Of a stretch of 64,000 bases of DNA, positions 1-29,047 are shown piece by piece. Source of the DNA: Cylicocyclus nassatus (taxonomy: Eukaryota > Nematoda > Chromadorea > Rhabditida > Strongylidae); the NCBI GenBank assembly GCA_958299035.1, contig CATQJL010000112.1, positions 12,252,880-12,316,879 on the forward strand, read 5' to 3'. The notes beneath the pieces were generated by a model, which did not search any database, had not been told where the DNA came from, and worked only from the letters and a program-made list of their open reading frames with translations. Position 1 is the first letter of the stretch. Every line of letters starts with the position of its first letter. The position numbers were made by a program, and so were the translations under genes.

Positions 1-1485
1 AGATGATCTGGTCCTGGAGCCGTGGACGTCTTCATGAATTGTATCGCGATACGCACTTCAGCAGGTATTATAGAATTCGTGGTGGTACTTCTCCAGTGGG
101 AACAACGGGCATCTGCACGGGTGTTGATGAGCGGAAGAGGTTGGTGTAAAAGTTTTTCGCGATAGATTCCATCTTGTACCGGGAAGAAGTGGAGTCCTGT
201 CTTCGTTCAGTAGTGCAGCCAGCGGTACGTGATATTCGCAGAGGTCCCTTCGGCACTTCTTGAGACTTCGTCTTCTCTCGGCTGCTTCCAGTATCTTGGC
301 TTGCCTGTACTTCCTGAGATCCTCCTGCAAAGCTGTTCTGCAACTGGCATTAGCTATCAGTCGCTCGAGATGGGGTGCATTCGGATCTTGCCTCAGAAAT
401 CTTCTTCTTTCGAGCATTTCCTTGGTGGTCCTCGAAATACGTTCAAGTTCTTCTCAGAGGTCACTGAGGCACATTCTCCGCAGGCTCGCAATCCTTTCAG
501 AAGCCGGTCGTAGTCGTGCGTTGGGTCCTCCTCGGTGGGCCAGTCACATCTTGATATGAGCTCCTCCAGCCTGTTACCGTCATAAACGACTTCCTTCCTT
601 TTCGCGACACCGTGACAGACTTTCTTTTCCAGCCTTCGGCTAAGTCGTATCTTGGTTCGAAGGAGCGGCGATCGGAGCCACTGCAGAAGGATGGAACTAC
701 TGAGACATCGAGCAAGCTCCACCTTCGTTTGGTGAGAATGTGGTCGATCTCCGCGTGAGTCGTTCCGTTGGGCAATTTCCATGTCCACCGGCGATGTTCT
801 TTCTTCATTGAGATAGAATTTTCCATGGAAGAGTCGTGCGGCGGAGAGAAGCCCAGCGAGACGGTTGCCGTTTTCGTTCCGGAGCCCATATCCAAACTTC
901 CCGATCCTATATTCCTTTTCCAGTGGCATCCCGATTTTCGCGTTGAAGTCGCCCACAACAAACTTGTAGAAGGACTTTTTGTTGCGGACGACCTCCTCCA
1001 CGTCTTCGTAGAAAGCATCTAGTTCTGAGTCGTCAGCTGCTGATGTTGAAGTGTAGCAGTTGATGATGCTGATGGTCTTCTGACGTGGAGGGCGTAGTCG
1101 TAGGATGGCTAGTCGGGGTGATAGGATCTCGTGCGAATCGACAAGATGGACGATAGATGGGTGGACGACAAAACCAACGCCTCCCACGTTTGTGATGGGA
1201 CCTTCTCACCACGAATGATGAGCGTCCCATCATTCATCTGTCGCACGTCCTTCTTCCTGAACTTCGTTTCCTGCAGAGCGATGATGTGGTACTTGATGTG
1301 CTCTGCAGCGTCGAGAAGAGCGTGGACGTCGGCGTTTGTGGAGACTGTCCTGGTTGTAGGTGCAGAGCATGAGGCAGTCTCCGTGGCGTGTCGTCCGGGC
1401 AGACGTGTCGTTTTTGTCCGATCCAAAAGGCGCCCTGAGGACCCTGACATCAGTCTTGCTACCACCCGGCGCCGTAGGCGGGATT
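1..1485 (-). mobile_element. RTE-type non-LTR retrotransposon, decayed copy (endonuclease to start of RT)
   Basis: Read on the minus strand, this encodes an apurinic endonuclease-like (APE/EEP) domain followed by the beginning of a reverse transcriptase. Visible landmarks are IIALQETKFR (catalytic Glu of APE, about 1290-1260), GGVGFVVHP (about 1180), [10 protein letters not shown] (about 960-930), and at the extreme left edge a stretch ending STAPGPD. This last matches RTAPGPD in the better-preserved copy at 23266-25583. The reading frame is broken by frameshifts: the endonuclease is split between a segment ending near 1109 and one starting near 1187, and again between about 560-740 and near 400. 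No intact protein can be made. RT, and presumably the 3' tail, continue to the left of the window. The family is RTE-like by domain order and by similarity to the second copy here; the clade name is from family knowledge. Confidence 0.85.
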
Positions 1486-1849
1486 CAGTGGCAAACTGAG
1501 GGGGGGGGCGGGGAAGGGGGGGGGGGGCGCCTCTCCCCGAGAATGGGTCGCGAAATTTTTGGAAGTTACTTAAATGTGTTATAAAACTGTGAAGATGACT
1601 TGCTTTTACTTGTAATTCATTAAAATAATTTTTAAAAACTTTTAAAAATTCAGTTTAGCTTTGTAAAAAAATTTTTTTCGGGGGCGTGACTGCCGCCACG
1701 CCCCTTTTTTCTGAAATTTTGGGGTCAGGAGCCTATTCTGGGAAACACCTCAAAAAATTTTTCAGAGTGCATGGCTGACGCCACGCACCTTCATTAAAAA
1801 ATTTTTTGTCGCCCCCCCCCCCCGAGCCGAAATCCTGGGTACGCCACTG
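1486..1849. mobile_element. hAT-like MITE inserted in the RTE copy
   Basis: A 364-bp non-coding element with ends CAGTGGCAAAC and, on the other strand, CAGTGGCGTACCCAGG. It contains poly(G) runs (1500-1508, 1516-1527), poly(C) (1812-1823) and runs of T/A. The flanking octamers GCGGGATT and GTGGGATC agree at 6 of 8 positions, as expected for an aged 8-bp hAT target duplication. RTE-like sequence lies on both sides, so it inserted after the RTE. A related element with a perfect 8-bp duplication is at 30887-31053. Confidence 0.6.
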
Positions 1850-12417: not shown

Positions 12418-12690
12418 TGTTGTGTCCTCCACTTTGGACACTTCGATTTTCGTCCTGAGGCGCACACGGGGAAATACAAGAATATTTATTAGCAAATAAT
12501 AGAGAACAGTAAAAATAAAAGAGGCGATGAGTGAACAGTCGAACTGTAGAACTGAACTGAACTGACTGTGACTATGAGTGAGCGCCTTTTATAGCGCTCG
12601 TTTCCCGCGCACTCTGAGGCTAAGATCGAATGCGCGAGGGCAGATCACTATGAGGAAAACAGCTGATCATATACGAACACTAACACAACA
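12418..12690 (-). repeat. 3' LTR of the Gypsy-type element
   Basis: 273 bp, TG...CA ends with the inverted heptamer TGTTGTG/CACAACA. On the minus strand it carries a TATAAAAG box (about 12586-12593) and an AATAAA polyadenylation signal (12485-12490). Confidence 0.95.
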
Positions 12691-12700
12691 CCTCCCCCAG
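12691..12700 (-). other. Polypurine tract
   Basis: Minus-strand CTGGGGGAGG directly precedes the 3' LTR. This is the expected position for the plus-strand priming site. Confidence 0.75.
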
Positions 12701-12847
12701 TAGGGTAGTTACACAAAACTAGCCTACGATAAAAAGCATGAACTACAAATATGAACAGCTAAAAATCGATTATACATAGACATCACTATCATTTAAGCAA
12801 CTATAAAACTAATAAAACAAACATACGATAACATACTATGGACTAGG

Positions 12848-14335
12848 TTAAAACCGTTGTACCGGTCTTCTCGTTCTGCTCGATCTCCGAAGCGTTGGCT
12901 CTGGCGTGGAGGGCTCGTGGCTTGATGGCGACGTCGATGTCGTTGAATCCACGGGTGCTGGCACATCGCTCGCGATCGCTTGCTCGGAATTCTCGTCGGC
13001 TGCACTGCTATTCCTCCGAGTGTCGTCTTCTGTCAAAACATCTAGGAGTATCTTCAAGGCTTCGGACTGTTGATGAAGTTGTTGTCGCACGGCGAGCTGT
13101 TCGCTATCGCTTCGATGTCGTAGCTGATTTGCATGCTTCTTGCACACCTCGTCGCCAACCATAACTTCATAATTGACACGTCCAATACGCCTCATCACGG
13201 TTCCTTTCATCCAATGGAAGTGGGGTGGCTTCCACTGTTTAGCGTAAACCAAGTCACCAACTTCGAATTCCTTTCGAACGACTCCATGCTTCTGGTCGAA
13301 CTGATCCTTCATGCGTTCCCGTCTCCTTCGTGCGAGTGGGTCTTCTGCATCTTCTGCCATCGGAAGTAACAGACTTAATTTTGTGCGCAAGTTTCTGCCT
13401 AGAAACAACTCCGCTGGCGTCTTGTCGTTCAAGTTCGTGTTTGGTGTTGTCCTATACGCTTGTAGCACCAGGTTTAGAGTCTCTTCTGTTGGCCTCTCCT
13501 CCCCCTCTAGTTTCTTGATCCCGCGTTTCAGCGTGTCAACGAAACGCTCTGCCTGTCCATTCGATTGAGGGTGGTACGGAGCAGTCCTTATATGTGTGAT
13601 TCCACCTTCGTCACACATCTTCTTAAACAAGTCCGACGTGAACTGAGTACAGTTGTCGCTCACTATTGTTTGCGGTAATCCATATCTCGCAAACAAATTC
13701 TTCAGAGCCTTCACCGTTTTCGCAGCTGAGATGTTGCTCATCTCGATCATCTCAGGCCATTTGCTGTACGCATCTACCACGACCAAGTAGAAGACTCCTT
13801 GCATAGGTCCAGCGAAGTCGATGTGTATCCTCTGCCACACTCGAGTCGCGGACGGCCATACTTCTAATGGCACCTTCGTCGGATTTTTGGCTAACTCCTG
13901 ACATTTCGTACATCTTCGTACTAAGTCTTCGCAATCTTTGTCGATATTCGGCCAGTAGACGTAACTTCGAGCTAACTTCTTCATCCTTACAATCCCTGGA
14001 TGACCACTATGTAGTTCCTTCAGAACACTTCTTCGAAGCTCCTTGGGTATCACAACCCTTTCGGCTGAAATCATACATTGCTCCACGATTGACAATGTCT
14101 CTCTTCGATTTCGAAAATGTGCCAATTCTCCATCCACGTCTGGCCACTCTCCTTTCTTCACGTAGGTCATTACTCTTTTTAGCACCGGATCCTTCTTCGT
14201 ATAGGATTGCACATCTGATGCTGTCACTGGCAATTTCCTTATGCAGTTCTTCAACATGCAATTAACGTCGTTTTCAACGGCAGCTATTATGACGTCTTCT
14301 TCGGGATTCTGATTCTTCGTCATCAACCGTGACAA
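12848..14335 (-). CDS. Gypsy-type Pol C-terminal part: integrase
   Basis: A 495-aa open frame containing the retroviral-type integrase. The zinc-binding HHCC module uses H108, H112, C142 and C145. The catalytic core has D173 (HIDFAG), D227 (VSDNCTQF) and E263 (AERF), a D,D(35)E arrangement. After the core comes a basic GPY/F-like region and an acidic, Ser/Pro-rich tail. The frame lies -1 relative to the upstream gag-pol frame and overlaps its end by 13 bases, so it was originally the continuation of that polyprotein. The internal Met at the start is probably not a real initiation site. The usual Gly after SDN is Cys here, which may impair the core. A chromodomain is not evident. Confidence 0.9.
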   Translation of the reverse strand: MSRLMTKNQNPEEDVIIAAVENDVNCMLKNCIRKLPVTASDVQSYTKKDPVLKRVMTYVKKGEWPDVDGELAHFRNRRETLSIVEQCMISAERVVIPKELRRSVLKELHSGHPGIVRMKKLARSYVYWPNIDKDCEDLVRRCTKCQELAKNPTKVPLEVWPSATRVWQRIHIDFAGPMQGVFYLVVVDAYSKWPEMIEMSNISAAKTVKALKNLFARYGLPQTIVSDNCTQFTSDLFKKMCDEGGITHIRTAPYHPQSNGQAERFVDTLKRGIKKLEGEERPTEETLNLVLQAYRTTPNTNLNDKTPAELFLGRNLRTKLSLLLPMAEDAEDPLARRRRERMKDQFDQKHGVVRKEFEVGDLVYAKQWKPPHFHWMKGTVMRRIGRVNYEVMVGDEVCKKHANQLRHRSDSEQLAVRQQLHQQSEALKILLDVLTEDDTRRNSSAADENSEQAIASDVPAPVDSTTSTSPSSHEPSTPEPTLRRSSRTRRPVQRF

Positions 14336-17076
14336 GGCATCGGGTGTCCGAACTTCGTAGTTTTGACATATTCTATGTCAAAGTCATATCCAAGCAGTAT
14401 TGTAGCCCATCTCATAAGTCGGTTAGCGGAGTAGACTGGAACTCCTTTCTTATCACCGAGAATGGCTAACAGTGGTTGATGATCCGTCAACAACAAAAAC
14501 TTTCGTCCAAATATGTACTTGTGGAATTTCTTGACTGCAAAAACAATTCCCAAGGCTTCCTTTTCGATCTGTGAATAGTTCTTCTCCGCCTTCGTTAAAG
14601 ATCGCGATGCATGTGCGATTGGCTTTTCGGATCCATCGGCATACCTATGCGATATCACACAGCCGATACCATAGTCGCTGGCGTCCGCTGCCACGACGAT
14701 CTTCTGCTTCGGATCATAGTGAGCAAGGTTTAGCTCACTTGACAAAGTCTCCTTGAGCTTTTCAAACGCTTCTTGGTGAATTCGAGTCCATTCCCACTTC
14801 GAATCCTTCTTCAGCATCGCATCCAACGGTCCACGAAGATCCTTGATCTTTGGCATAAACGCCGCATAGTACGTTATCATGCCAAGAAACGCTTTCAATT
14901 GGCTAACATTCTTCGGTTCATTCATATTCTTGATTGCTTCGATCTTCGCTAGATTCGGTCTTCTGCCATTTTTATCCACTATGAAGCCAAGATATCGTAT
15001 CTCTGGCTTGCCAAAAGAACATTTTTCCAAGCGAATCCTAAATCCGTACTCGGCGATTCTTGCGAACACAGCTAATAAGTTCTCCAAGTGTTCCTCTTCG
15101 GTTCTTCCACAAACCAAGATGTCGTCTAGGTAGGTTGCTACCCCTCGCAGACCACTCACCATCTTATTCATGATTTGCTGGAAGATTCCTGGTGCTGTCT
15201 TGATTCCAAAAGGCAGTCTGTTGTACTGGTACAGTCCTCTATGCGTATTTATTACCACCATTTTCTTCGCTTCTTCTGACAATTCGATTTGCAGATAGGC
15301 GTCCGACAGATCTATCTGCGAAAACACCGTTCCTCCGTTGAGGGATGCGAAAATATCCTCCGGTAATGGCAACGGATAATCGTACGACTCCAGCGCTTTG
15401 TTGAGTCCGGTTGAGAAATCAGCACACACTCTCAACTTTCCATTCGCCTTCCTAACGCATACGATAGGGGCTGCCCATTCGCTATGTGTCACGGGACTTA
15501 TAACCTTCAGGTCCAATAGCCTGTCAAGCTCCTTTTCGACAGCTTCGAGCGCAGCATGTGGAACAGGTCTACTAGCCTTGAAAACAGGATAAACGTTTTC
15601 GTCAACTCTCAAGTGTGCCTTTTCCTTCGTGCATAATCCTAGACCTTCTTCGCAGACTTCTGGATAGGCTTCTTTCAGCTTCTGAGCGATGTCATGGGTT
15701 CGCTCTGTCTTCACTTCAGCAATCATTCTGCTTAAGTGATAGGACATATTTTCGTTCTTCTGAATCCACTCAAGTCCTAGCAGTGAGTTGTGAGGTGTCA
15801 CGTATGCGTAGCCTTCGCTTTTGGATCCTTTGATTTCGTACTCACACCATAGTTTTCCATGGACTTTCATGGAACCTCCACTAGCATTTTTGACGACCAC
15901 GTTCGTGTGCTCCAACCGAGGAGCGCCCATGCTTCTCCATGTTGATTCGTTCAAAAGTGTGATGTCTGATCCAGTATCTAGCAGAAAACTAACTGGATGA
16001 CTATTCACTCTTGCTTCGATATACATGCGTGTCGAGTTGACATCCACCATCGCATTTGCAATCTTCGCTACGCTGTGCACATGACGTTTTGGTTTCGTCC
16101 AACTTTTGTTCTTACTGGTGTCGCTGCTGCTGTGGATTCTTCGTTTCGAATGCTGCTGAGTAAGCATTCTCTCCGCTATTTGTTCGCAAAACTTCTCCTT
16201 ATGACCTGTCTTCTTGCATTTCTTGCAAAACCACAGCTTAGCTTTGCAATCTCTTGAAAAATGTTCACCACCGCAGTTCCAGCACTCCAGTTTTTTCGGC
16301 ACTTCCTTGCTTGTTGCTTCGACGGCTTTAAAGCACCCAGCTACAGTCTCACTATCCTTCTTGAGACTCAGGAAGTTTTCGCATTCCAGGTACAACTCCT
16401 GCAGCGACATTTTTCGTCCGGCCTTGTATTCTTTGTCCAGCACGGCGATGAGTCGCTGCCTGATTTCAGCTTCTTTTTGGCTCTTCAAGCCAAATATCCA
16501 TAGCAGGCATTCGATCCCGTCGCTGTCGAGGTCGTGGATCTTCGCCTTTTCGCACAGTTCGTTCACTCGACCGGTATACATGAGGTAATCTTCGGAATCC
16601 GCCTTCTCCAGCTTCAAACACTGGTACCTCATGGTAAATTCGGAGATCTTCAAGTCGAACAGCTGCTTCAATGTTTCGACCGTTTCTTCGAATTTGATGG
16701 TGGTTACCTCTTTCGGTAGCACATGCCTCTGATATTTTTCGAAACAATCCTTGTCCAGTTTTTCGCACAACAGCCTTACCCTGGCGCTCTCTGTGAGCTG
16801 CTTCGCGTCTTCGACAAAGACTTCCTTGTAGCGAGCGTACCATCTGCTGAAGCACATATCCGCCTCGGGGTCGAAGGAGAACTTTTCGATCCTGTTGCTG
16901 AGCGCGGACATCACATTCGGAATTTCGGTTGAGGTACTGCTTCGTTCAGTACCAGTAATGTGCTTCAATATCTCCAGTAGTTCTCTTCTTTCTTCTTTCA
17001 TCAGTTCTCTGAGATTTCGCTGATCTTCTTGGAACTCCTTCAGCATCAGCATCTCTTCTGATCCCATCTTCGCCAT
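14323..17076 (-). CDS. Gypsy-type Gag-Pol polyprotein (gag, protease, RT, RNase H)
   Basis: A 917-aa frame starting 76 bases inside the 5' LTR. Residues about 1-260 are a gag-like helical region. There are two zinc knuckles: C265-X2-C-X3-H-X4-C277 and C284-X2-C-X4-H-X4-C297. The aspartic protease active site is DTGSD at 367-371. The RT fingers/palm include LPFGIKTAPG at 621-630 and the catalytic YLDD at 649-652. RNase H has DASDYG at about 798 and TDHQPL at about 864. The frame ends just after the RNase H domain in a stop caused by a one-base shift (about 14340-14350), where the sequence in the neighbouring frame continues in the expected way into integrase. Apart from this, the polyprotein is uninterrupted, in keeping with a young insertion. 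Confidence 0.93.
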   Translation of the reverse strand: MAKMGSEEMLMLKEFQEDQRNLRELMKEERRELLEILKHITGTERSSTSTEIPNVMSALSNRIEKFSFDPEADMCFSRWYARYKEVFVEDAKQLTESARVRLLCEKLDKDCFEKYQRHVLPKEVTTIKFEETVETLKQLFDLKISEFTMRYQCLKLEKADSEDYLMYTGRVNELCEKAKIHDLDSDGIECLLWIFGLKSQKEAEIRQRLIAVLDKEYKAGRKMSLQELYLECENFLSLKKDSETVAGCFKAVEATSKEVPKKLECWNCGGEHFSRDCKAKLWFCKKCKKTGHKEKFCEQIAERMLTQQHSKRRIHSSSDTSKNKSWTKPKRHVHSVAKIANAMVDVNSTRMYIEARVNSHPVSFLLDTGSDITLLNESTWRSMGAPRLEHTNVVVKNASGGSMKVHGKLWCEYEIKGSKSEGYAYVTPHNSLLGLEWIQKNENMSYHLSRMIAEVKTERTHDIAQKLKEAYPEVCEEGLGLCTKEKAHLRVDENVYPVFKASRPVPHAALEAVEKELDRLLDLKVISPVTHSEWAAPIVCVRKANGKLRVCADFSTGLNKALESYDYPLPLPEDIFASLNGGTVFSQIDLSDAYLQIELSEEAKKMVVINTHRGLYQYNRLPFGIKTAPGIFQQIMNKMVSGLRGVATYLDDILVCGRTEEEHLENLLAVFARIAEYGFRIRLEKCSFGKPEIRYLGFIVDKNGRRPNLAKIEAIKNMNEPKNVSQLKAFLGMITYYAAFMPKIKDLRGPLDAMLKKDSKWEWTRIHQEAFEKLKETLSSELNLAHYDPKQKIVVAADASDYGIGCVISHRYADGSEKPIAHASRSLTKAEKNYSQIEKEALGIVFAVKKFHKYIFGRKFLLLTDHQPLLAILGDKKGVPVYSANRLMRWATILLGYDFDIEYVKTTKFGHPMPCHG

Positions 17077-17129
17077 TCTAGTCGACTGCTACCGGGGGTT
17101 TCGACTGCTCTCTGCCTTCTTCGACTCCA

Positions 17130-17152
17130 CGTGTCTTCGTCCTGATCGCCAC
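17130..17152 (-). other. Candidate primer binding site
   Basis: On the minus strand, the bases just inside the 5' LTR read G then TGGCGATCAGGACG. A TGG start is expected for pairing with a tRNA CCA end. I do not assign the tRNA. Confidence 0.55.
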
Positions 17153-17425
17153 TGTTGTGTCCTCCACTTTGGACACTTCGATTTTCGTCCTGAGGCGCAC
17201 ACGGGGAAATACAAGAATATTTATTAGCAAATAATAGAGAACAGTAAAAATAAAAGAGGCGATGAGTGAACAGTCGAACTGTATAACTGAACTGAACTGA
17301 CTAAGACTATGAGTGAGCGCCTTTTATAGCGCTCGTTTCCCGCGCACTCTGAGGCTAAGATCGAATGCGCGAGGGCAGATCACTATGAGGAAAACAGCTG
17401 ATCATATACGAACACTAACACAACA
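17153..17425 (-). repeat. 5' LTR of the Gypsy-type element (promoter)
   Basis: 273 bp, three substitutions from the other LTR. Minus-strand TATAAAAG lies at 17321-17328 and AATAAA at about 17219-17224. It should drive transcription of the element. Confidence 0.95.
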
Positions 17426-17682
17426 ACCTGCAACTTGTACTTCTTCGGACAACAGGTACAAAAATCTAAAAAAAAATAGCCGAACTTGACCATGGCAAAA
17501 AGCATGAGTCGCACATTTCGTTAATTTTTCGAAAGATCAATGAAAATTATGCAATGAAATTACAACCATTAGAGAGAGGATGATAGGCTGCATCGAATGC
17601 CCCTAAGATCTCTTGAAAATCTTGATTCCATGAAATGTGGCGTTTATTTGAAGAAAGCGACATTACTTTCGGAACGACCTAT

Positions 17683-21250: not shown

Positions 21251-24200
21251 CTGAACAAGGGCATTGTGCTTAGACGAAATCCCTGCGGAGTTCTTTTCCA
21301 GCACCCAACAGCTTGGTGATGGTTGTTCACATACCTGCACCGATGCCTGAAAGAATACTAAAAACATGGATGAGTATAGGTTTACTTAAGCCAACATCGA
21401 AGAAAGAAAAAAAAGAGAAAAATTAGAGGAGGAACAGAAGCGAAACAGTATGGAAGAAAAGAGTGCGCTATGCGTTGTTGACGTTGCGTTCGCTATTTCG
21501 CAATCGCGAATGCATGCGCTCTCAAAGTCCTGCGGAAATGCTGGCAGGTCAAAGTGCTGCGGAAACCTTACGAGGCTCACTGCACTTTCGCAGCGCTTTA
21601 TGGAAAGTGCTGCAGAAGTTCCGGTTTACGATTGCTGTGACGTCAATTTCCTGCGGAAACCTCGCATTTTGTAGCGTGCACTTTCTCAATGGTTAAGAAA
21701 GTGCTGCGGAAACGTTACAAGTTCTGCTTGTCCTGCGGAAGTTCCGGTGAATTGTCTGAGAGTGTTAGAAATCCCCCCCCCCTCCCTACTGGAGGAAAGC
21801 GCTACATAAAAGTTTGAAAATTTCTTTAGTTTGTTGTTTGTTGTTTGGAAATGTTTGGAAATAAAAATGAGTCCGTATAGCATTCCCAAAGGAAGGTGGA
21901 GAACTTCGAAATACTCATTGCTTAAGCTATCTCGAAAGATTCTTTTGTGGTCTTGAATTACAGCTGTATATTCTTGCTCAGACCGTACTCACCATTGTAC
22001 CATGGGCGCTGATTGGTCCGCTCGAATGCATTACGGTCTGGGACGGAGTTTTTTGATGAATTTTTCAGCTACTATAAATAATAGGAGCTTCCGCTTGGGC
22101 AGCGGCTTACCTTAGGCCGCTAAATTAGCATCTATGTAAGGTTCAGGTACCCAGATTTCTCTGGAATTATCATCAGGGTAAAGCGGGGGTGCGGCACGCG
22201 ACCGCCGGATACGACCCCCCCTTGGGCCGGACCTCGGCACGACCCCCCACCCCCATTCCCTACCCCCCCCCCCGCTCTTGATCTTTCGATGCAATGAGGG
22301 TGTTCTGCAAGAAACTGACGAGTGATGGTACCACAATTTTGCTAGATAACACGGATTCTCAGTGACACAGTTCTTGTGTGATTGTGGGATTGTGGAAATA
22401 TTTGAAGAATATTTGAGAATTGAATATAATTGAATATTTATAGAATTGTAGCCTCGTAACGGCATGACTCATTTAACAGATCGATACAAGCGTTATCGGG
22501 AACACTAATCCACAAATCGGATAAATATGTACTCGTGTGAAAAACAGAAAAAGTGAAATGTGCTGATACAAGAATAAAAGTACGAATATTGCAAAAAGTT
22601 CAAATCGTACATTCTCGTTGATCAGCTGTCGTTCATGCTCAAATGAAGAACTCAACGAGGACAGTTCGTTTGTCAGATCCATATTCGATAACTCGAGCTG
22701 TAAATAAAAAGAAGTTATGAAATTTGATATTTAGTTATTCTATCTAATGAGTTAGTCATGTCGGCGACGATGTTGGTTCCATGCTCAATTTTGCCTTTCA
22801 CTATTAGCATGATATATTGCAAATTGGGACCACGTTTATCACAACGCGCAAATGAATTGTTTTAGCAAGAAACTTTTGTTGAATTAAAAGAACGGCCATA
22901 GGTTGCCGGTGTTGTCGGTGTTTGCCGGTGTTGTCGGGGTCGTTGGGGTCAGAGACAATTTAGAGAGCGCGCGAAACGTGGAGGCTATCATGAGGTTCTG
23001 CAACGACCGGCAACCTCGGCAACATCGACAACCTAAGCAGCACCGTCAACACCGACAACACCGGCAACCTATGGCCGTTCCCTAAGGCAACAAACTATGC
23101 GAAAATGAAAGAATAACACTCGTACAGGCAAACAGAAACCATATTCGATAGTTGATATAGACGCTATGACGTAAGCAATATCATGCTACTCACACTTCTG
23201 ATACTGTTCGATTGTACATCGTTTTTCTCTTCGAACTTGGACATTTCCACCTCGTACCGTTTCTTTCTTTAGGACTATCCATGGAAACTCACAGTTCCAA
23301 AAGCCCTCTTCCTTACGCTGGACCTGGGAATCGCCCGGTGGAGAGTACCATAACGAGATTGACCACATCATCGTCAACAGAAGGTACTGCCTGACGGACG
23401 TCGCTGTTGTTCCGAAGTTCTACACGGGATCAGAACATCGTCTCCTGCGCGCCAAATTCTACTTTCCGCGGAATGGAGAGAGAGCCGTCAAGTTCAGGAA
23501 ACATCGTCCCATGAATATCACCAACTGGGATCTGTTTTCTTCGATATCCGGCTCATGGCGAGATACCGTGATGGACAACATCGACGAAGAATACGAACGG
23601 TTCGTACAACATCTCCACGGTTGTGCCAAGGAAGCTCAGAGTCTAAGAAGTACGAGAAGGCGTCTCATCACGGGGACTTTGGAGCTGATACGCCAACGTG
23701 GACGCGCACGAGCCACAGGCAACTACCGACTGACGTCCGAGCTTGCGAAGCGATGCAGAGAAGCGATAAAAGAAGACCTTAAGGAGAGAAGAGTAGCAGT
23801 GATGGTTGACGCCGCGGAGGCTGGAAGAAGTATACGCAACGCCCGCCGAAGCTTCGTCAACTTCAAGACAAAGATGACCGCACTTCGTCGTCCTGACGGA
23901 ACCATAACTGCTTCCCGAAGATCAATGGAGAAGGTCATCCACGACTTCTACTCGGATCTTTTTGCGAGCCACGTCCACCTTCCACCATGCCATCTCAAGG
24001 AGGACGAGTATGTCGCACCGTCTGTTCTTCCTTCCGAGATTCGTCATGCTATCATGTCGATGAAAAACCGTACAGCACCCGGTCCCGACGGGATTAAGCC
24101 AGAACATCTGAAGAATCTTTCGCCAGTTCTCATCAAGACTTTGGCAAGGCTCTTCACGCGGTACCTGACGGAAGGCAAGGTTCCAAGGCAATGGAAGACC

Positions 24201-26762
24201 AGCAAAACCGTGTTGCTGTACAAGAAGGGAGATCCCTGCGACATCGGCAATTATCGCCCTATCTGCTTGTTGTCTGTAGTCTACAAACTCTTCACGCGAG
24301 TCATTCTCAACAGGATCGGAAGAGAGTTGGACGAAGGACAACCATGCGAGCAAGCTGGGTTTCGAAGAGGATTCAGCACGATCGACCACATACACACGGT
24401 GTCAAGGCTCATTGAAGTGTCACGAGAGTATAAGATGCCGCTCTGTCTCGCCTTCATCGACTTGAAGAAGGCCTTTGACTCGGTTGAGACTGAAGCCGTC
24501 ATCGATGCCTTGAGCAATCAAGGTATTCCGACTCATTACATCAAGATAATTCGTGAGCTGTATAACGACTTCACAACCACCATAACACCATTCTACAAGG
24601 ACATTATCATTGACGTGAAGAGAGGCGTGCGACAAGGCGATACTATATCGCCGAAACTATTCAGTGCCGCTCTGGAGAACGTCATGCGTAAGTTGGAATG
24701 GGACAACATGGGAGTGAAAGTCGACGGCCGGCAGCTACACCACCTTCGCTTTGCTGATGACATCGTATTGATAACACCAAGCATCACGCAGGCGGAACAA
24801 ATGCTGGCCCAGTTTGACGAAGTGTGTGGAAAGATCGGTCTACGGCTGAATCTAACGAAGACGATGTTCATGAGGAACGGAAGAGTGCCTGATGCTCCTT
24901 TCATGCTCAACGGGACGAACATCACCGAATGCTCAAGCTACACCTACCTAGGTCATGAACTCAATATGATGAACGATCTAGCTCCGGAACTGAGCAGAAG
25001 GAAACGTGCAGCATGGGGAGCATATAAGACAATTAAGGACGTAGTGAAGAAGACCAAGAACATCCGGCTCCGCGCCCACCTTTTCAACTCGACGGTTCTT
25101 CCTGCTTTGACGTACGCTTCAGAAACATGGACAATGAGAAAGCAGGATGAACACGCGGTTAGCGTCATCGAACGAGCTGTTGAGAGAGTGATGCTAGGAG
25201 TGAATCGACTCACGCAAGTGAGGCAAGAATTACGAAGTTCTACCCTACGTCAACGATCGAAGATCAGGGACGCTGCCGCGTACGCCAAGCAGAACAAGAT
25301 AAGATGGGCCGGGCACGTAATGCGTTTCGACGACAACCGGTGGACGAGAGCTGTAACAGATTGGATACCACTGGACGTCAAACGCGAACGAGGAAGACCG
25401 CCGACGCGATGGTCAGATATGTTCACGAAGTCCTTTAATGAAGTCCTTCAGAGCGTTCCACGTGTTCCTGGTGCGATACGTAAACATTGGTCAACAATCG
25501 CCCGAGACAGGGACGAATGGAGGCATCACTGGTACCCGCTCGTGCAACACGATGATCAACGGGGATACAGGTGATACAGGTGATACCGTTTCTTCTCTTC
25601 GATCATCTGGAACATCAATGAAGTAGACTTCTTTGCAGTAAACGATGCCGAACCAAGAGTCGCAATATTCCAACCTGTTCAAGTTTGTTGCTAACTTGGG
25701 TAAACTTGGTAAGATTGCTTTCGTTCTCGCATGCATGCGAGTCACCTATCTCACGAGCACTAACGCGTACGGTCTCCTCTAGCTGACCAATTTTATCACG
25801 ACAAACATTAAGTTCCGTGAGGTTTGCTTCGATTCTGAAAACAAATCAATCAGTGCAGTTGTTGCAGTGTAAAGTGCTACTTGCAAAACATGGCAAAGAG
25901 AAATTCTTACTTCCCGTGAAGTTCTTCCACACGCTTCCCCTTTTGCAAAGCATCACCTTTTGCATCTTCCAGATCTTTTTTACAAGCTGTTAGCAAATGC
26001 CGTGTGTCCTCCCTCTAACTCAGTGACCAAAGCACGGACTTCTTCAGCAGACCTAGAACAGTTGCTCGATCGTGAAGGCAATTCACTCTAAGATGAAGGG
26101 CTAATCATAACTTGAGGAAAATCTACCATATTTTCCATCCCAAGACAATTCTAGTCAAAAAACCTGGATCATCAAAGTCTGTCCCATTATGGATAGACAA
26201 ATTACATATTCACTCCTGTAGCTCTACTGTCACACACTTATTAGCAGTAGTGAAAGTAGCTGATTAAGCAAATTTATACACCACTATAACGTTAGATCTG
26301 AGATGTGATGAGGTGCAACTCGTTTTAACAAAGTTTATGTGCAGCTTGTTCGTTGCAGATGAAAGCAGGAACGCAAGATCTCCAACTCAAAACAAATATA
26401 TGCTCAAAATGATAGAAAGGGCTGCCAAAAATTACTCGGTTGCTGTCATGAAAGGTCTTACAAATGACAAGTTGGATATTCAGAAGGAGCGACAAATTAT
26501 TGGGCCTTGATGGTAACATAAAAGTGCTTCATGCTCCTCAAGCGAAGAGCTTAGACAAAATGCAAATTGTTAATCAAGGCATACTCGGAATTTGCTTGTG
26601 AAAAAACAGAAAAAATAGGCGTTAAAAGAGCATGATTAGCAGATAAGTATGACCTAGTTCCCATAGCATGGAAAGGCTTGAGAAGGAAGCATAAACTCAC
26701 TCTTTCGAAGTCCACTGGTGTCGGAGAGTTGCTTTTGGAGATTATCTACGACGCACTTCTGC
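21251..26762 (-). CDS. Coiled-coil protein gene, partial, one exon split by an RTE insertion
   Basis: I do not recognise this gene. On the minus strand I see six exons with consistent frames, rich in Glu, Lys, Leu and Gln like a coiled coil: 26762-26701 (QKCVVDNLQKQL), 26052-25911 (SAEEVRALVTEL, then CKKDLEDAKG), 25834-25675 (KIEANLTELN...KLEQ), a 36-codon exon now in two pieces (25630-25584 and 23265-23194, MIEEKKRYEVEMSKFEEKN), 22697-22611 (LELSNMDLTNELSS) and 21346-21251 (ASVQVCEQPS...ALVQ). Donors GTAAG, GTGAG, GTACG and GTATG and acceptors TTTCAG and TTTACAG fit nematode splicing, and phases join for the last four exons. At least one exon between 26052 and 26701 is missing, and both gene ends are outside what I can follow. 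A one-base excess in the 26052-25911 exon breaks its frame. Function unknown; a cytoskeletal or Golgi tether-like role would be a guess. Confidence 0.65.
21450..21770. repeat. CTGCGGAAA-rich repeat
   Basis: Several copies of (T)GCTGCGGAAA and CCTGCGGAA on one strand. The right end, read in reverse as CTCAGACAATTCACCGGAAC, resembles CTCAGACAACCGACCGGATC at 18073-18092 in opposite orientation. It lies within an intron of the minus-strand coiled-coil gene. Confidence 0.5.
21975..22290. repeat. Small inverted repeat and G/C-run repeat
   Basis: CAGACCGTA...TACGGTCTG brackets about 65 bp at 21979-22045. At 22160-22280 a TCAGGGTAAAGCGGGGGTGCGGCACGC block leads into poly(C) tracts; an inverted relative is at about 27880-27975. 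Confidence 0.5.
22891..23079. mobile_element. Foldback element with minisatellite arms (GTTGTCGGTG type)
   Basis: Ends AACGGCCATAGGTTGCCGG and its complement are perfect inverted copies. The left arm is a degenerate GGTGTTGTCGGTGTTGCC array and the right arm its complement, around a spacer of about 80 bp. It lies in the intron between two coiled-coil exons. Confidence 0.75.
23194..23265 (-). pseudogene. Distal half of the coding exon interrupted by the RTE
   Basis: Minus-strand codons run from the target duplication (23265-23255) to a GTGAG donor at 23193. Together with 25630-25595 and one copy of the duplication they form a 108-base exon of 36 codons in one open frame, phase 0 at both ends. 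Confidence 0.7.
23266..25583 (+). mobile_element. RTE-type non-LTR retrotransposon, 5'-truncated, ORF intact
   Basis: About 2.3 kb bounded by an 11-bp target duplication TACCGTTTCTT (23255-23265 and 25584-25594). It begins within the second half of the endonuclease, as expected from incomplete reverse transcription, and ends in a short tandem tail of TGATACAGG units (about 25562-25583), the simple-repeat 3' end typical of RTE elements. The coding frame is open throughout. Confidence 0.93.
23511..25574 (+). CDS. RTE reverse transcriptase (endonuclease C-terminus continues upstream)
   Basis: From the first Met the frame gives 687 aa. It stays open upstream without a Met to about 23266, encoding the end of the APE endonuclease (landmarks NEIDHIIVNRRY, then GSEHRLLRAKF, the catalytic His region). 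Reverse transcriptase motifs: RTAPGPDGI at 187-195, NYRPICLLS at 247-255, FIDLKKAFDS at 315-324 with the first catalytic Asp, GVRQGDTISP at 372-381, and the catalytic FADD at 414-417. A C-terminal region with RWAGHVMR and GRPPTRWSD follows, common in this family. The protein would nick target DNA and copy element RNA at the nick. This copy lacks the N-terminal half of the endonuclease and so is not self-sufficient. Confidence 0.93.
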   Translation: MNITNWDLFSSISGSWRDTVMDNIDEEYERFVQHLHGCAKEAQSLRSTRRRLITGTLELIRQRGRARATGNYRLTSELAKRCREAIKEDLKERRVAVMVDAAEAGRSIRNARRSFVNFKTKMTALRRPDGTITASRRSMEKVIHDFYSDLFASHVHLPPCHLKEDEYVAPSVLPSEIRHAIMSMKNRTAPGPDGIKPEHLKNLSPVLIKTLARLFTRYLTEGKVPRQWKTSKTVLLYKKGDPCDIGNYRPICLLSVVYKLFTRVILNRIGRELDEGQPCEQAGFRRGFSTIDHIHTVSRLIEVSREYKMPLCLAFIDLKKAFDSVETEAVIDALSNQGIPTHYIKIIRELYNDFTTTITPFYKDIIIDVKRGVRQGDTISPKLFSAALENVMRKLEWDNMGVKVDGRQLHHLRFADDIVLITPSITQAEQMLAQFDEVCGKIGLRLNLTKTMFMRNGRVPDAPFMLNGTNITECSSYTYLGHELNMMNDLAPELSRRKRAAWGAYKTIKDVVKKTKNIRLRAHLFNSTVLPALTYASETWTMRKQDEHAVSVIERAVERVMLGVNRLTQVRQELRSSTLRQRSKIRDAAAYAKQNKIRWAGHVMRFDDNRWTRAVTDWIPLDVKRERGRPPTRWSDMFTKSFNEVLQSVPRVPGAIRKHWSTIARDRDEWRHHWYPLVQHDDQRGYR
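25584..25630 (-). pseudogene. Proximal half of the coding exon interrupted by the RTE
   Basis: Minus-strand exon start after a short intron (25674-25631, 44 bases, acceptor GCAAAG; an alternative acceptor lies three bases further). The codons read into the target duplication and, in the pre-insertion allele, straight on into 23254-23194. Confidence 0.65.
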
Positions 26763-29047
26763 CTAAAGACAACAGCCACTCTTATCCAGGGTACAGCGAT
26801 GTAGTACAATCGACATAGATAAGCTCTAGATACCTGCAAGGAATGGCTACACGTAGAATCAAAACAAAGAAAATCACACTTGATGAACGGGCAGATGTCG
26901 CTCCAGTCGAGCTGAGTTGACTAACGACTGCTTACATTCCGGACAAACGAGAGAGAAAAGCGAGAAAAAAAGAGAGAAACCCGAAAAACTGCACATCACA
27001 AGATGAGATTTTAGCTCGCAGATTTCAAAGACTCGCATCTCGCGGCTTTGTGTTTTGACAGTTTTCGAGCACTAACGTAACCCAATATTTTTTGGCCACA
27101 CTTCCCAGCATATGGTTCGCAAAAACCATATGTATCTCCTTCTGTAGAAGAAGGTTCGAGGGGAAGCAGCTACTACGGAGAGAGGAAGGATGGATCTATA
27201 GGTTGACATGAAAAAGGCAGCTGTTTGAACGTTTTGAAGGTAAGTTGATGGCCTGCGGCACCCCCCCCCCCCCTCAAAACCTGCGGCAGCCGCAGGTTCT
27301 GAGGGGGGGGGGGGTGCCGCAGGCCATTAACTATATCAAAAAAAACATTTTTAGCGGACAATATTTATATGAATCAATAGCCTAAACCTCGTAGATTCCA
27401 TAGGGATGTTTTGAGCCTGATTCGTCTTCTTAGCTCTGAGTAATATTTGGTGAAAGCACAGCGATCAAAAGCTAAAAGCGATATTGGCTGGCTTCTAATT
27501 CAATAGTTTGGAGGTCTTCTGAAGCGGGATTCCTGAGGTGGACAAAGAAGGAGTAGTGCTTTGTATTGAGTGCAAGAAGAGGTAGCTTACTCACCGTTGA
27601 GATGAAGTTAATCATGTTTTAAATTACTGCTTTATACAAGGTTGTTTACTGCTCGGAGACCTCAGAGTTCGCTGAAACTTGGGCATAGGGGTTATTCGAC
27701 ACGCGGATTATGACAATTATGCTTGATTAGAGGTACGGTAGGTTACGGTAGGCATACGGTATCTGCAAATTTGTGTCGTTGAACTTGAATTTCGCAGGAT
27801 TTCAACAGCGTGGCACATCTAAGAATTTAGCTGCAGTCATTTCCCCTTAGAAACCGCTTTTGACCTTGGGTCGATACGACCCCCCCCCCCTACCTACCCC
27901 CCTCCCTTACGACCCCCCCACCTCTGCGGCGTGCCGCACCCCCCCCCCCACTTTACCCTGATTATCATTGAATGAAGTTCTCCCGCTTATGTTTTCACTT
28001 CAAATTCATATAGTTCCGCGTCTGATTTCGGATGCTTGCAAAGTCCAGCCCTCGCTCCCACATGGCTACCTATTCCGGAGCTCGCTTATGAAAGTTTGAG
28101 CGTCACCTTAATTCCAGGGCTCGGCACAGGTGCCTTGCAAGCAAGGTGGATATTGTTTTTGAAACCGAAAAGGCACAAAAAATCGTATTTTTTAGTCGAC
28201 GTCTCGTTGCTTGAGGGTTTTTTAACGTTCAGGGTTTATAATCAGAGGGAGCTTTGTAAGGGACTTTGTTTTTTTGCATTTTCAAAAGTTACCTCGTGCC
28301 GAGCCCTGCTTAGCTCCGCCCGTTTAGCTGTAATTTCATTTTTACCGAGTGTTCTCCATCGTTTTTTCTTACTCACCAACAACTGTGCCTAACTAACCGG
28401 AATATCGAAGAAATTGAATTCCCATCCTTACGGAAGACTTGCTCTATAACGAACATATACACGTATTAATGTTCTAGCTATTTAATGAGGGATTCCTGGT
28501 TCACTCATTGTTACACCATTTTCAAAAAATCTGCAAATAAAGTGCTGCTCCAGAAAAACTCTGTTGCGACTCAGCGATGCGAGCAGCTCCTCGAAACAGC
28601 GAGCCGGGAGCGCTGGTTGCCGCACTGCCAGTCGCGCTGCTATTTTCGCGGCTGGACCTCTTCCGCTGGCTGCCAAGCAGAGGGCTATATATAGCCGCGC
28701 CCAGAGCCCTTGACCGGGCATTCTTCTGACTGTTCAACTGACTATCCTAAAGCATGGGAAGGGGGGCGGGATTAGGGTCACCCGAGGAAGTTCGTCTAAA
28801 TGATTCATCTCAAGTCACCTGGGATGAATGGGGTTTACTACGGGCCTTTACCTTCTTTTAGGTCATTTCATAATTTTTCACAACAACAATTTTCAAGAGC
28901 TAGGGAATTATTTTTTGCTCCTCTATCTTGACCTCTTTGTGTTTCCAAATTTTGCAGAATGAGATAAACACAGAAATATACATAATGCCGATATAGAAAG
29001 TATACCTGAGCAAGCTAGAAGTCCATGAAATGTTTTTTGAACAAGTA
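26763..29047. other. Gene-free stretch with palindrome and poly(C/G) repeats
   Basis: Holds the perfect C/G-run palindrome at 27248-27327, a poly(C) cluster at 27880-27949, and a GC-rich patch with CTATATATAG at 28680-28695. I cannot extend the coiled-coil gene into it. Confidence 0.45.
27248..27327. repeat. Palindrome with poly(C)/poly(G) arms
   Basis: ATGGCCTGCGGCAC followed by C13, then AACCTGCGGC, and the inverted copy with G12 ending GTGCCGCAGGCCAT. About 40-bp arms with almost no loop. Confidence 0.9.

What the first reader, a model, noticed from the sequence alone, without database searches (positions are those of the whole stretch)
23194..25630. RTE retrotransposon inserted inside a coding exon of a coiled-coil gene
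Removing 23266-25583 plus one copy of the 11-bp duplication TACCGTTTCTT rejoins a 108-base minus-strand exon. It has 36 open codons, phase 0 at both ends and splice sites at both borders, and neighbouring exons in matching phase. The gene is therefore broken in this haplotype by a recent insertion in opposite orientation. If the gene is otherwise conserved, this would be a natural loss-of-function or presence/absence allele.
Basis: partly seen in the sequence, partly recalled or inferred. Interest (0 to 1): 0.75.

Follow-up and report, generated by a model that had tools for sequence, protein, structure and literature searches.

The report
Retrotransposon inside a captured gene fragment
A jumping element landed in a dead scrap of an endosome gene that another transposon had apparently carried here; a complete-looking copy of the gene lies elsewhere in the genome, so this is a nested relic rather than a knocked-out gene, and the carrier transposon seems to have picked up pieces of several genes.

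Summary
The insertion is real: a 5'-truncated retrotransposon copy (23271-25583; 5 extra bases 23266-23270) with an 11-bp target duplication splits an exon on the minus strand. The exon is 84 nt, not 108. The broken-gene reading is not supported. The host sequence (22274-26800) holds only middle exons of EEA-1 (175 of 1256 reference residues). The parent gene, from zinc finger to FYVE domain, lies on contig C1 at 54.9 Mb without the insertion. The window copy lacks both gene ends, has two other frame-breaking length changes, and its substitutions look unconstrained. It sits between terminal inverted repeats (22174-27960) with a perfect 8-bp duplication (ATTATCAT): a hAT-like, Pack-type element. 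Copies with the same arms carry fragments of other genes (Dopey; amphiphysin), three of them with their own 8-bp duplications; a second, decayed EEA-1-bearing copy lies on C1 at 64.4 Mb. Likely order: capture, transposition, decay, then a young retrotransposon hit. Pack-type hAT elements are known in animals; in the passages of the one survey I saw, multicopy ones were rare, so the carrier family is the interesting part. Presence/absence polymorphism and expression were not testable.

The parts
22166..22173 (.). 8-bp target site duplication ATTATCAT, left copy
   Evidence: only pair in the area searched with 8/8 duplication and at least 9/10 terminal repeat match; 1 of 200 resamples has one
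22174..22273 (+). Left arm (100 bp) of the hAT-like Pack-type element, starts CAGGGTAAAG
   Evidence: aligned with left ends of 4 other copies (L037, L038, L039, L040), which then split by cargo
22274..26800 (-). Captured fragment of the EEA-1 gene, exons and introns, interrupted by the retrotransposon
   Evidence: 86% to C1:54906932-54908151 and further matches down to C1:54906112
26702..26762 (-). EEA-1 exon remnant 1, one frame-breaking length change relative to the parent
25911..26052 (-). EEA-1 exon remnant 2, frame-breaking length change relative to parent and to copy B
   Evidence: borders read against the parent exon
25675..25834 (-). EEA-1 exon remnant 3, open
25584..25606 (-). EEA-1 exon remnant 4, 5' part (includes one copy of the 11-bp duplication)
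23194..23265 (-). EEA-1 exon remnant 4, 3' part (includes the other copy of the 11-bp duplication)
22611..22697 (-). EEA-1 exon remnant 5, open
22274..22304 (-). EEA-1 exon remnant 6, cut by the left arm
22890..23080 (.). Small palindromic repeat (MITE-like) in an intron, shared with copy B, absent from parent A
23255..23265 (.). 11-bp target site duplication TACCGTTTCTT of the retrotransposon, left
23266..23270 (+). 5 extra bases at the 5' junction, matched by none of the 39 other scored places
23271..25583 (+). 5'-truncated non-LTR retrotransposon copy (RTE-like), reverse transcriptase frame open
25584..25594 (.). 11-bp target site duplication, right
26806..27960 (+). Right arm of the hAT-like Pack-type element, ends CTTTACCCTG
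   Evidence: 40 of 40 scored places match (2686 first-look candidates); 85-94% in L036-L040, in L038 and L039 over part of it
27961..27968 (.). 8-bp target site duplication ATTATCAT, right copy

Best explanation
Nested transposons around a gene relic. (1) A hAT-like, non-autonomous terminal-inverted-repeat element captured a stretch of the EEA-1 gene with its introns (about 2 kb; how it was captured is inferred). (2) The loaded element transposed and made the 8-bp duplication ATTATCAT here; a second, decayed loaded copy (B) lies on C1 at 64.4 Mb. (3) The fragment decayed without visible constraint, with frame breaks. (4) Later a 5'-truncated RTE-like retrotransposon inserted by target-primed reverse transcription (inferred from truncation and 11-bp duplication) into what had been an 84-nt exon. 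No working gene was lost: a complete-looking parent EEA-1 gene remains at C1:54.897-54.910 Mb. Shown: relation to that gene, empty sites in two paralogs, element ends and duplications, other gene fragments on the same arms. Inferred: capture route, hAT superfamily, order of the frame breaks relative to the retrotransposon.
For: Parent and second copy. Parent: 1187 of 1256 hookworm residues matched, window 175, B 159. EEA-1 identity: 17 relatives at the default cut-off, best 82% over 100% of the query; FYVE (Pfam E 1.2e-15); EEA1 structures 1joc (E 1.3e-14) and, weakly, 3mjh (E 0.0044). Element: one duplication/terminal-repeat pair in the area searched (1 of 200 resamples has one). Of 7 copies examined (window, B, L036-L040) 4 have both ends with perfect 8-bp duplications, each different; in 3 one end was not found. 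Same arms, other interiors, traced to one diverged place each, Dopey and amphiphysin. Decay: codons differing only in the window copy 7 synonymous/14 nonsynonymous, only in B 10/17, only in A 7/2 (Fisher W+B against A p=0.027, W alone p=0.046); W-B distance coding 0.134, noncoding 0.118. Young insertion: 12 private sites in 2313 among the 8 copies compared against 24 of 772 noncoding sites private to the window copy.
Against: The hAT label rests on duplication length and end motif; no transposase was found in the right arm, the L038 interior or 1.5 kb of L045. B has no recognisable left end within the 30 kb held, its end motif differs by a base, and about 6 kb of other sequence splits its right arm. 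The codon counts are small. Overall W-A dN/dS is 0.24, so part of the history was under constraint: the path between A and the W/B ancestor looks constrained (7 syn, 2 non), which would fit capture from another EEA-1 allele or a duplicate that worked for a while. The 'only in A' class mixes changes on A with changes in the W/B ancestor. The parent gene model was chained by a simple script and finished by hand; 69 reference residues were not matched.
Confidence: 0.9

Rival explanations
1. One reading: a functional coiled-coil gene is disrupted in this haplotype by a recent retrotransposon insertion, a natural loss-of-function or presence/absence allele.
For: Exon frame, neighbouring phases and duplication are real; insertion is young.
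Against: Both gene ends are missing, other exons have frame-breaking changes, the stretch lies in a transposon-like element and a complete-looking gene is elsewhere.
Confidence: 0.02
2. An ordinary segmental duplication of part of EEA-1 that was later flanked by chance by two unrelated repeat ends; no transposon carried it.
For: Introns are retained and the right arm belongs to a very common repeat family (2686 first-look candidates, 40 scored).
Against: Perfect 8-bp duplication at exactly both ends; the same two arms enclose other gene fragments with their own 8-bp duplications in L037, L039, L040; left arms agree for about 100 bp and then split by cargo.
Confidence: 0.06
3. The loaded element is a new chimeric transcription unit (as some animal Pack-TIRs are) and the retrotransposon has modified or silenced it.
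For: A proportion of Pack-TIRs in animals are transcribed, often as chimeras (PMC8277862, abstract and passages); exon remnants 3 and 5 keep open frames and splice sites, and remnant 4 does if the insert is set aside.
Against: Substitution pattern looks unconstrained; frame breaks in exon remnants 1 and 2; no transcript data were available.
Confidence: 0.05
4. Assembly or haplotype artefact: a misjoined alternative haplotype of EEA-1.
For: Only one assembly was available.
Against: 14% divergence from A and 19% from B, and a different contig; shared intron repeat with B but not A.
Confidence: 0.02

Closest known systems
Pack-TIRs of animals, in particular Pack-hAT elements (Tan et al. 2021, PMC8277862)
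   Same: Host gene sequence between hAT-type terminal repeats; the survey reports 370 Pack-TIRs in 100 animal genomes, 208 of them hAT
   Different: The passages I saw name four multicopy cases in the reference genomes (three frog, one alligator), with a 291-bp capture as example; here arms of one family bear three traced multi-exon fragments, two of them at three places each and EEA-1 at two
Plant Pack-TYPE elements (Pack-MULE, Pack-CACTA, Pack-hAT; PMC8903248)
   Same: Non-autonomous terminal-repeat elements carrying captured coding DNA; hAT ones there have 8-nt duplications
   Different: Plants; acquisition there is proposed through tandem insertions and re-mobilisation, not tested here
Turmoil-1 of C. 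elegans (PMC2572040)
   Same: Nematode DNA transposon that took up coding fragments of host genes
   Different: Harbinger superfamily, which usually makes 3-bp duplications; short fragments (205 and 131 bp) inside the inverted repeats
RTE clade non-LTR retrotransposons
   Same: Reverse-transcriptase frame, 5' truncation, target duplication, short 3' repeats instead of a long poly(A) (clade traits recalled)
   Different: Clade not tested by phylogeny

Membership tests
Pack-type terminal-inverted-repeat element | Terminal inverted repeats with a target duplication of fixed length enclosing the whole structure | tested here: met
   Window: CAGGGTAAAG/CTTTACCCTG and ATTATCAT twice. Both ends with equal 8-bp duplications in 4 of 7 copies examined; one end not found in B, L036, L038
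Pack-type terminal-inverted-repeat element | Interior derived from a host gene whose parent lies elsewhere, outside such an element | tested here: met
   EEA-1 parent at C1; no CAGGGTAAAG or mirror in the 72 kb held around it. For Dopey and amphiphysin the parent is taken to be the one diverged place; their flanks were not examined
Pack-type terminal-inverted-repeat element | Related copies with the same ends without this cargo | tested here: met
   L037-L040 (both arms) and L036 (right arm)
hAT superfamily | 8-bp target site duplication | tested here: met
   4 of 7 copies, four different 8-mers
hAT superfamily | Transposase of the hAT type in an autonomous relative | tested here: inconclusive
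   No Pfam match in six frames of the right arm or of the L038 interior; no autonomous copy was sought in the genome
EEA-1 (early endosome antigen 1) gene | N-terminal C2H2 finger, long coiled coil, C-terminal FYVE | tested here: not met
   Window copy: only coiled-coil exons, reference residues 297 to about 487. Parent A has all three, the finger below Pfam cut-offs and matching EEA1 3mjh at E 0.0044
RTE clade retrotransposon | Reverse transcriptase domain | tested here: met
   RVT_1 E 1.2e-34
RTE clade retrotransposon | RT phylogeny inside the RTE clade | not tested
RTE clade retrotransposon | 5' truncation and target duplication | tested here: met
   Of 7 other copies fetched, 6 share about 790 bp and 1 about 570 bp further 5'; 11-bp duplication

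The most novel reading that the evidence does not exclude
One hAT-like family in this nematode is a serial gene-capture vehicle: its arms (a 100-bp left end and a right arm with 2686 first-look candidate relatives) have independently picked up multi-exon, intron-bearing pieces of at least three host genes (EEA-1, Dopey, amphiphysin; perhaps a DOCK-like gene and others seen only as different interiors) and amplified them. That would be a Pack-MULE-like system in an animal, and could act on the parent genes through small RNAs.
Probability: 0.6. Interest if true: 0.65.

Novelty: new member of a known kind. Interest (0 to 1): 0.45.

Why it matters
It corrects a plausible false positive: an exon with splice sites, a clean duplication and a young insertion looked like a natural knockout, yet a complete-looking gene is present elsewhere. 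More usefully, it exposes a transposon family in a nematode (close to hookworms by its EEA-1) that carries pieces of several conserved genes. In the passages I saw of the one animal survey, multicopy Pack-TIRs were rare, so a family with several multicopy cargoes would be a tractable case for how terminal-repeat transposons take up introns and exons, and whether such cargo silences its parent genes. It also warns gene annotators: such fragments look like genes.

Tried and rejected
Rejected: disrupted allele of a working gene (see rivals); plain segmental duplication. The 27804-27976 match beside copy B first looked like shared flank beyond the element end; alignment showed B's own end there. 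The L045 interior gives only a weak DOCK hit (TPR_DOCK E 0.022; joined pieces only weak TPR matches and no PDB match), so DOCK is a by-eye guess. The L046 interior holds a phage-integrase-like stretch, probably another mobile element. A weak Myosin_TH1 hit for the first cargo and weak PDB hits were set aside once the diverged place showed Dopey; PDB had no match for the Dopey pieces. The Rfam scan of the window at gathering scores was empty. Left ends were looked for in the 1.5 kb held upstream of 11 right arms (L041-L047, L049-L052) and not found in any, the window's own included since its left end lies further off; L048 was not tested. Pattern searches for two left ends did not complete.

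Dropped before counts: first mixed non-homologous codons into dN/dS; one search repeats it without exon 1, with exon 6 cut at the break, and with a local-identity filter on columns (489 coding, 772 noncoding columns kept). Rows for common repeats near 29-35 kb were ignored. In one search rows lying wholly inside the retrotransposon were not printed. Of the 40 scored retrotransposon places only 8 were compared base by base. From the script's exon chain of the parent I dropped by hand two pieces and the outer exons, which looked spurious, and added the finger and FYVE frames.

Full report
What is there. TACCGTTTCTT stands at 23255-23265 and 25584-25594 with no further match on either side. The insert carries one long open frame (23202-25574 stop to stop) with a reverse transcriptase domain. 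It belongs to a young family: 40 places were scored of 745 first-look candidates, the window included, and all are 99-100% identical. Of the 7 other copies fetched, 6 share about 790 bp and one about 570 bp further at the 5' side, so this one is 5'-truncated; five bases, 23266-23270, are matched by none of the 39 other places. The 3' end is a short repeat (GATACAGGT), not a long poly(A). The clade name RTE was not tested.

The host sequence is not a working gene. Searching the right flank against the same assembly gave 12 places, three of them long: the window itself, C1:54906932-54908151 (86%, here A) and C1:64405862-64406570 (81%, here B). Both lack the insertion. A is part of a complete-looking gene: a simple script chained the coiled-coil exons, a C2H2 finger frame lies before them and a FYVE frame after them at C1:54897.3 kb; I put these together by hand. 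The resulting protein has 17 relatives at the default cut-off; 16 of the 17 carry a source name and these are nematodes, the best 82% identical to Ancylostoma ceylanicum over 100% of the query. The FYVE part hits Pfam FYVE (E 1.2e-15) and EEA1 structure 1joc; the finger hits EEA1 structure 3mjh at E 0.0044 and stays below Pfam cut-offs. I take A to be EEA-1 (early endosome antigen 1). Against the hookworm protein (1256 residues), A matches 1187 residues between 1 and 1256, the window 175 between 297 and about 487, and B 159. The window stretch has neither finger nor FYVE.

Two exons upstream of it in the window carry frame-breaking length changes relative to A; the one in exon 2 is also absent from B. 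Codons differing in one copy only: window 7 synonymous and 14 nonsynonymous, B 10 and 17, A 7 and 2 (Fisher p 0.027 for window plus B against A, 0.046 for the window alone). Window-B distance is 0.134 in coding and 0.118 in noncoding columns. So both fragments seem to have been drifting. The path between A and the window/B ancestor looks constrained, which I read as capture from another EEA-1 allele, or a short working life; numbers are small. The whole-history W-A dN/dS is 0.24.

How it came here. At 22174 begins CAGGGTAAAG and at 27960 ends CTTTACCCTG, and the 8 bases outside each, ATTATCAT, are identical. No other pair in that search area meets the criteria; 1 of 200 resampled sequences gave one. 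Bases 26806-27960 recur across the genome: 2686 first-look candidates, 40 of 40 scored places match. Five copies were fetched with wider flanks. L037, L039 and L040 have the same ends and perfect but different 8-bp duplications (GTAATGAC, GTCATGAT, CACATAAC). In L038 only the left end and in L036 only the right end was found. Left arms agree for about 100 bp (L038 is some 20 shorter) and then split by class.

Between the arms these copies do not carry EEA-1. L037 and L040 share one interior (96%), and L036, L038 and L039 share another (91-95%), unrelated to the first apart from the end next to the right arm. The first interior is found at three places next to the element's right arm and at one diverged place, C112:37632080-37633650 (84 and 75%); exons at that diverged place match Dopey (Pfam Dopey_N, E 2.6e-10 for pieces joined by hand, 1.8e-5 and 2.2e-6 for single pieces; no PDB match). 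The second is at three element places and one diverged place, C305:43136000-43138141 (79-89%); exons there match amphiphysin (9bqx, E 1.7e-20; BAR in Pfam just under the cut-off). A further interior (L044/L045) has three places at 98-100%, one partial at 97%, and two diverged ones; it looks, by eye and by a weak Pfam hit, DOCK-like, which later tests did not confirm. Six more right arms (L047-L052) have upstream sequences that differ from most others beyond about 70-130 bp; no left end was found in the five of them tested. They are either more cargoes or broken copies.

Copy B is probably an older loaded copy: it shares with the window an intron repeat (22890-23080) that A lacks and parts of the right arm, split by about 6 kb of other sequence, and an end CAGAGTAAAG lies at C1:64398367. 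Its left end was not found in the 30 kb held.

Timing. The retrotransposon has 12 private sites in 2313 among 8 copies compared; the window copy has 24 private noncoding sites in 772 since its split from B. The insertion is thus likely the last event. Whether it is fixed cannot be told from one assembly.

Literature. Transduplication of protein-coding genes was called unknown in animals in 2008, when Turmoil-1 of C. elegans was described (PMC2572040, first of two parts of the text read). A 2021 survey found 370 Pack-TIRs in 100 animal genomes, 208 of them hAT, with four multicopy cases named in the passages I saw; one passage concerns an element near rpb-4 and mtch-1, names of worm style, so nematodes were probably covered (PMC8277862, outline, abstract and passages). 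Plant Pack-TYPE elements of several superfamilies, hAT with 8-nt duplications included, are described in PMC8903248 (passages); PMC8616336 (passages) reviews the subject. Listings for gene capture, Pack-type and transduplication (titles and abstract beginnings only) showed no strongylid case; they cover one open library only.

Verdict. Observation sound with one correction. The knockout reading is not supported. The finding is a nested relic, and the carrier family is a new, unusually well-loaded member of the animal Pack-TIRs.

Noticed in passing
window 12418-17429 (-): LTR retrotransposon: two terminal repeats of about 277 bp, 98.6% identical, with long gag-pol-like frames between (921 and 509 codons, in different frames). 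Looks young.
   Followed up: no
window 58-1654 (-): Frames resembling another interrupted retrotransposon (resemblance by eye).
   Followed up: no
C112:37632080-37633650, C305:43136000-43138141, C1:54897082-54910383: The three traced cargo parents (Dopey, amphiphysin, EEA-1) are all endosome or membrane-traffic genes (functions recalled). Three cases may be chance.
   Followed up: no
L047-L052: Right arms of the element joined to different upstream sequence beyond 70-130 bp: more cargoes, or one-ended copies.
   Followed up: partly
L046, within the 1.5 kb upstream of its right-arm match: Phage-integrase-like (tyrosine recombinase) stretch, Pfam E 1e-6: another mobile element near or inside this copy.
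   Followed up: partly
window 22890-23080: Palindromic MITE-like repeat with many copies in the genome, inside an intron of the fragment (query 22450-23265, 40 of 527 candidates scored, 147 matching pieces, most in this repeat).
   Followed up: partly
window 27243-27332: Nested palindrome with long C and G runs inside the right arm, present in L036-L040 too at least in part.
   Followed up: no
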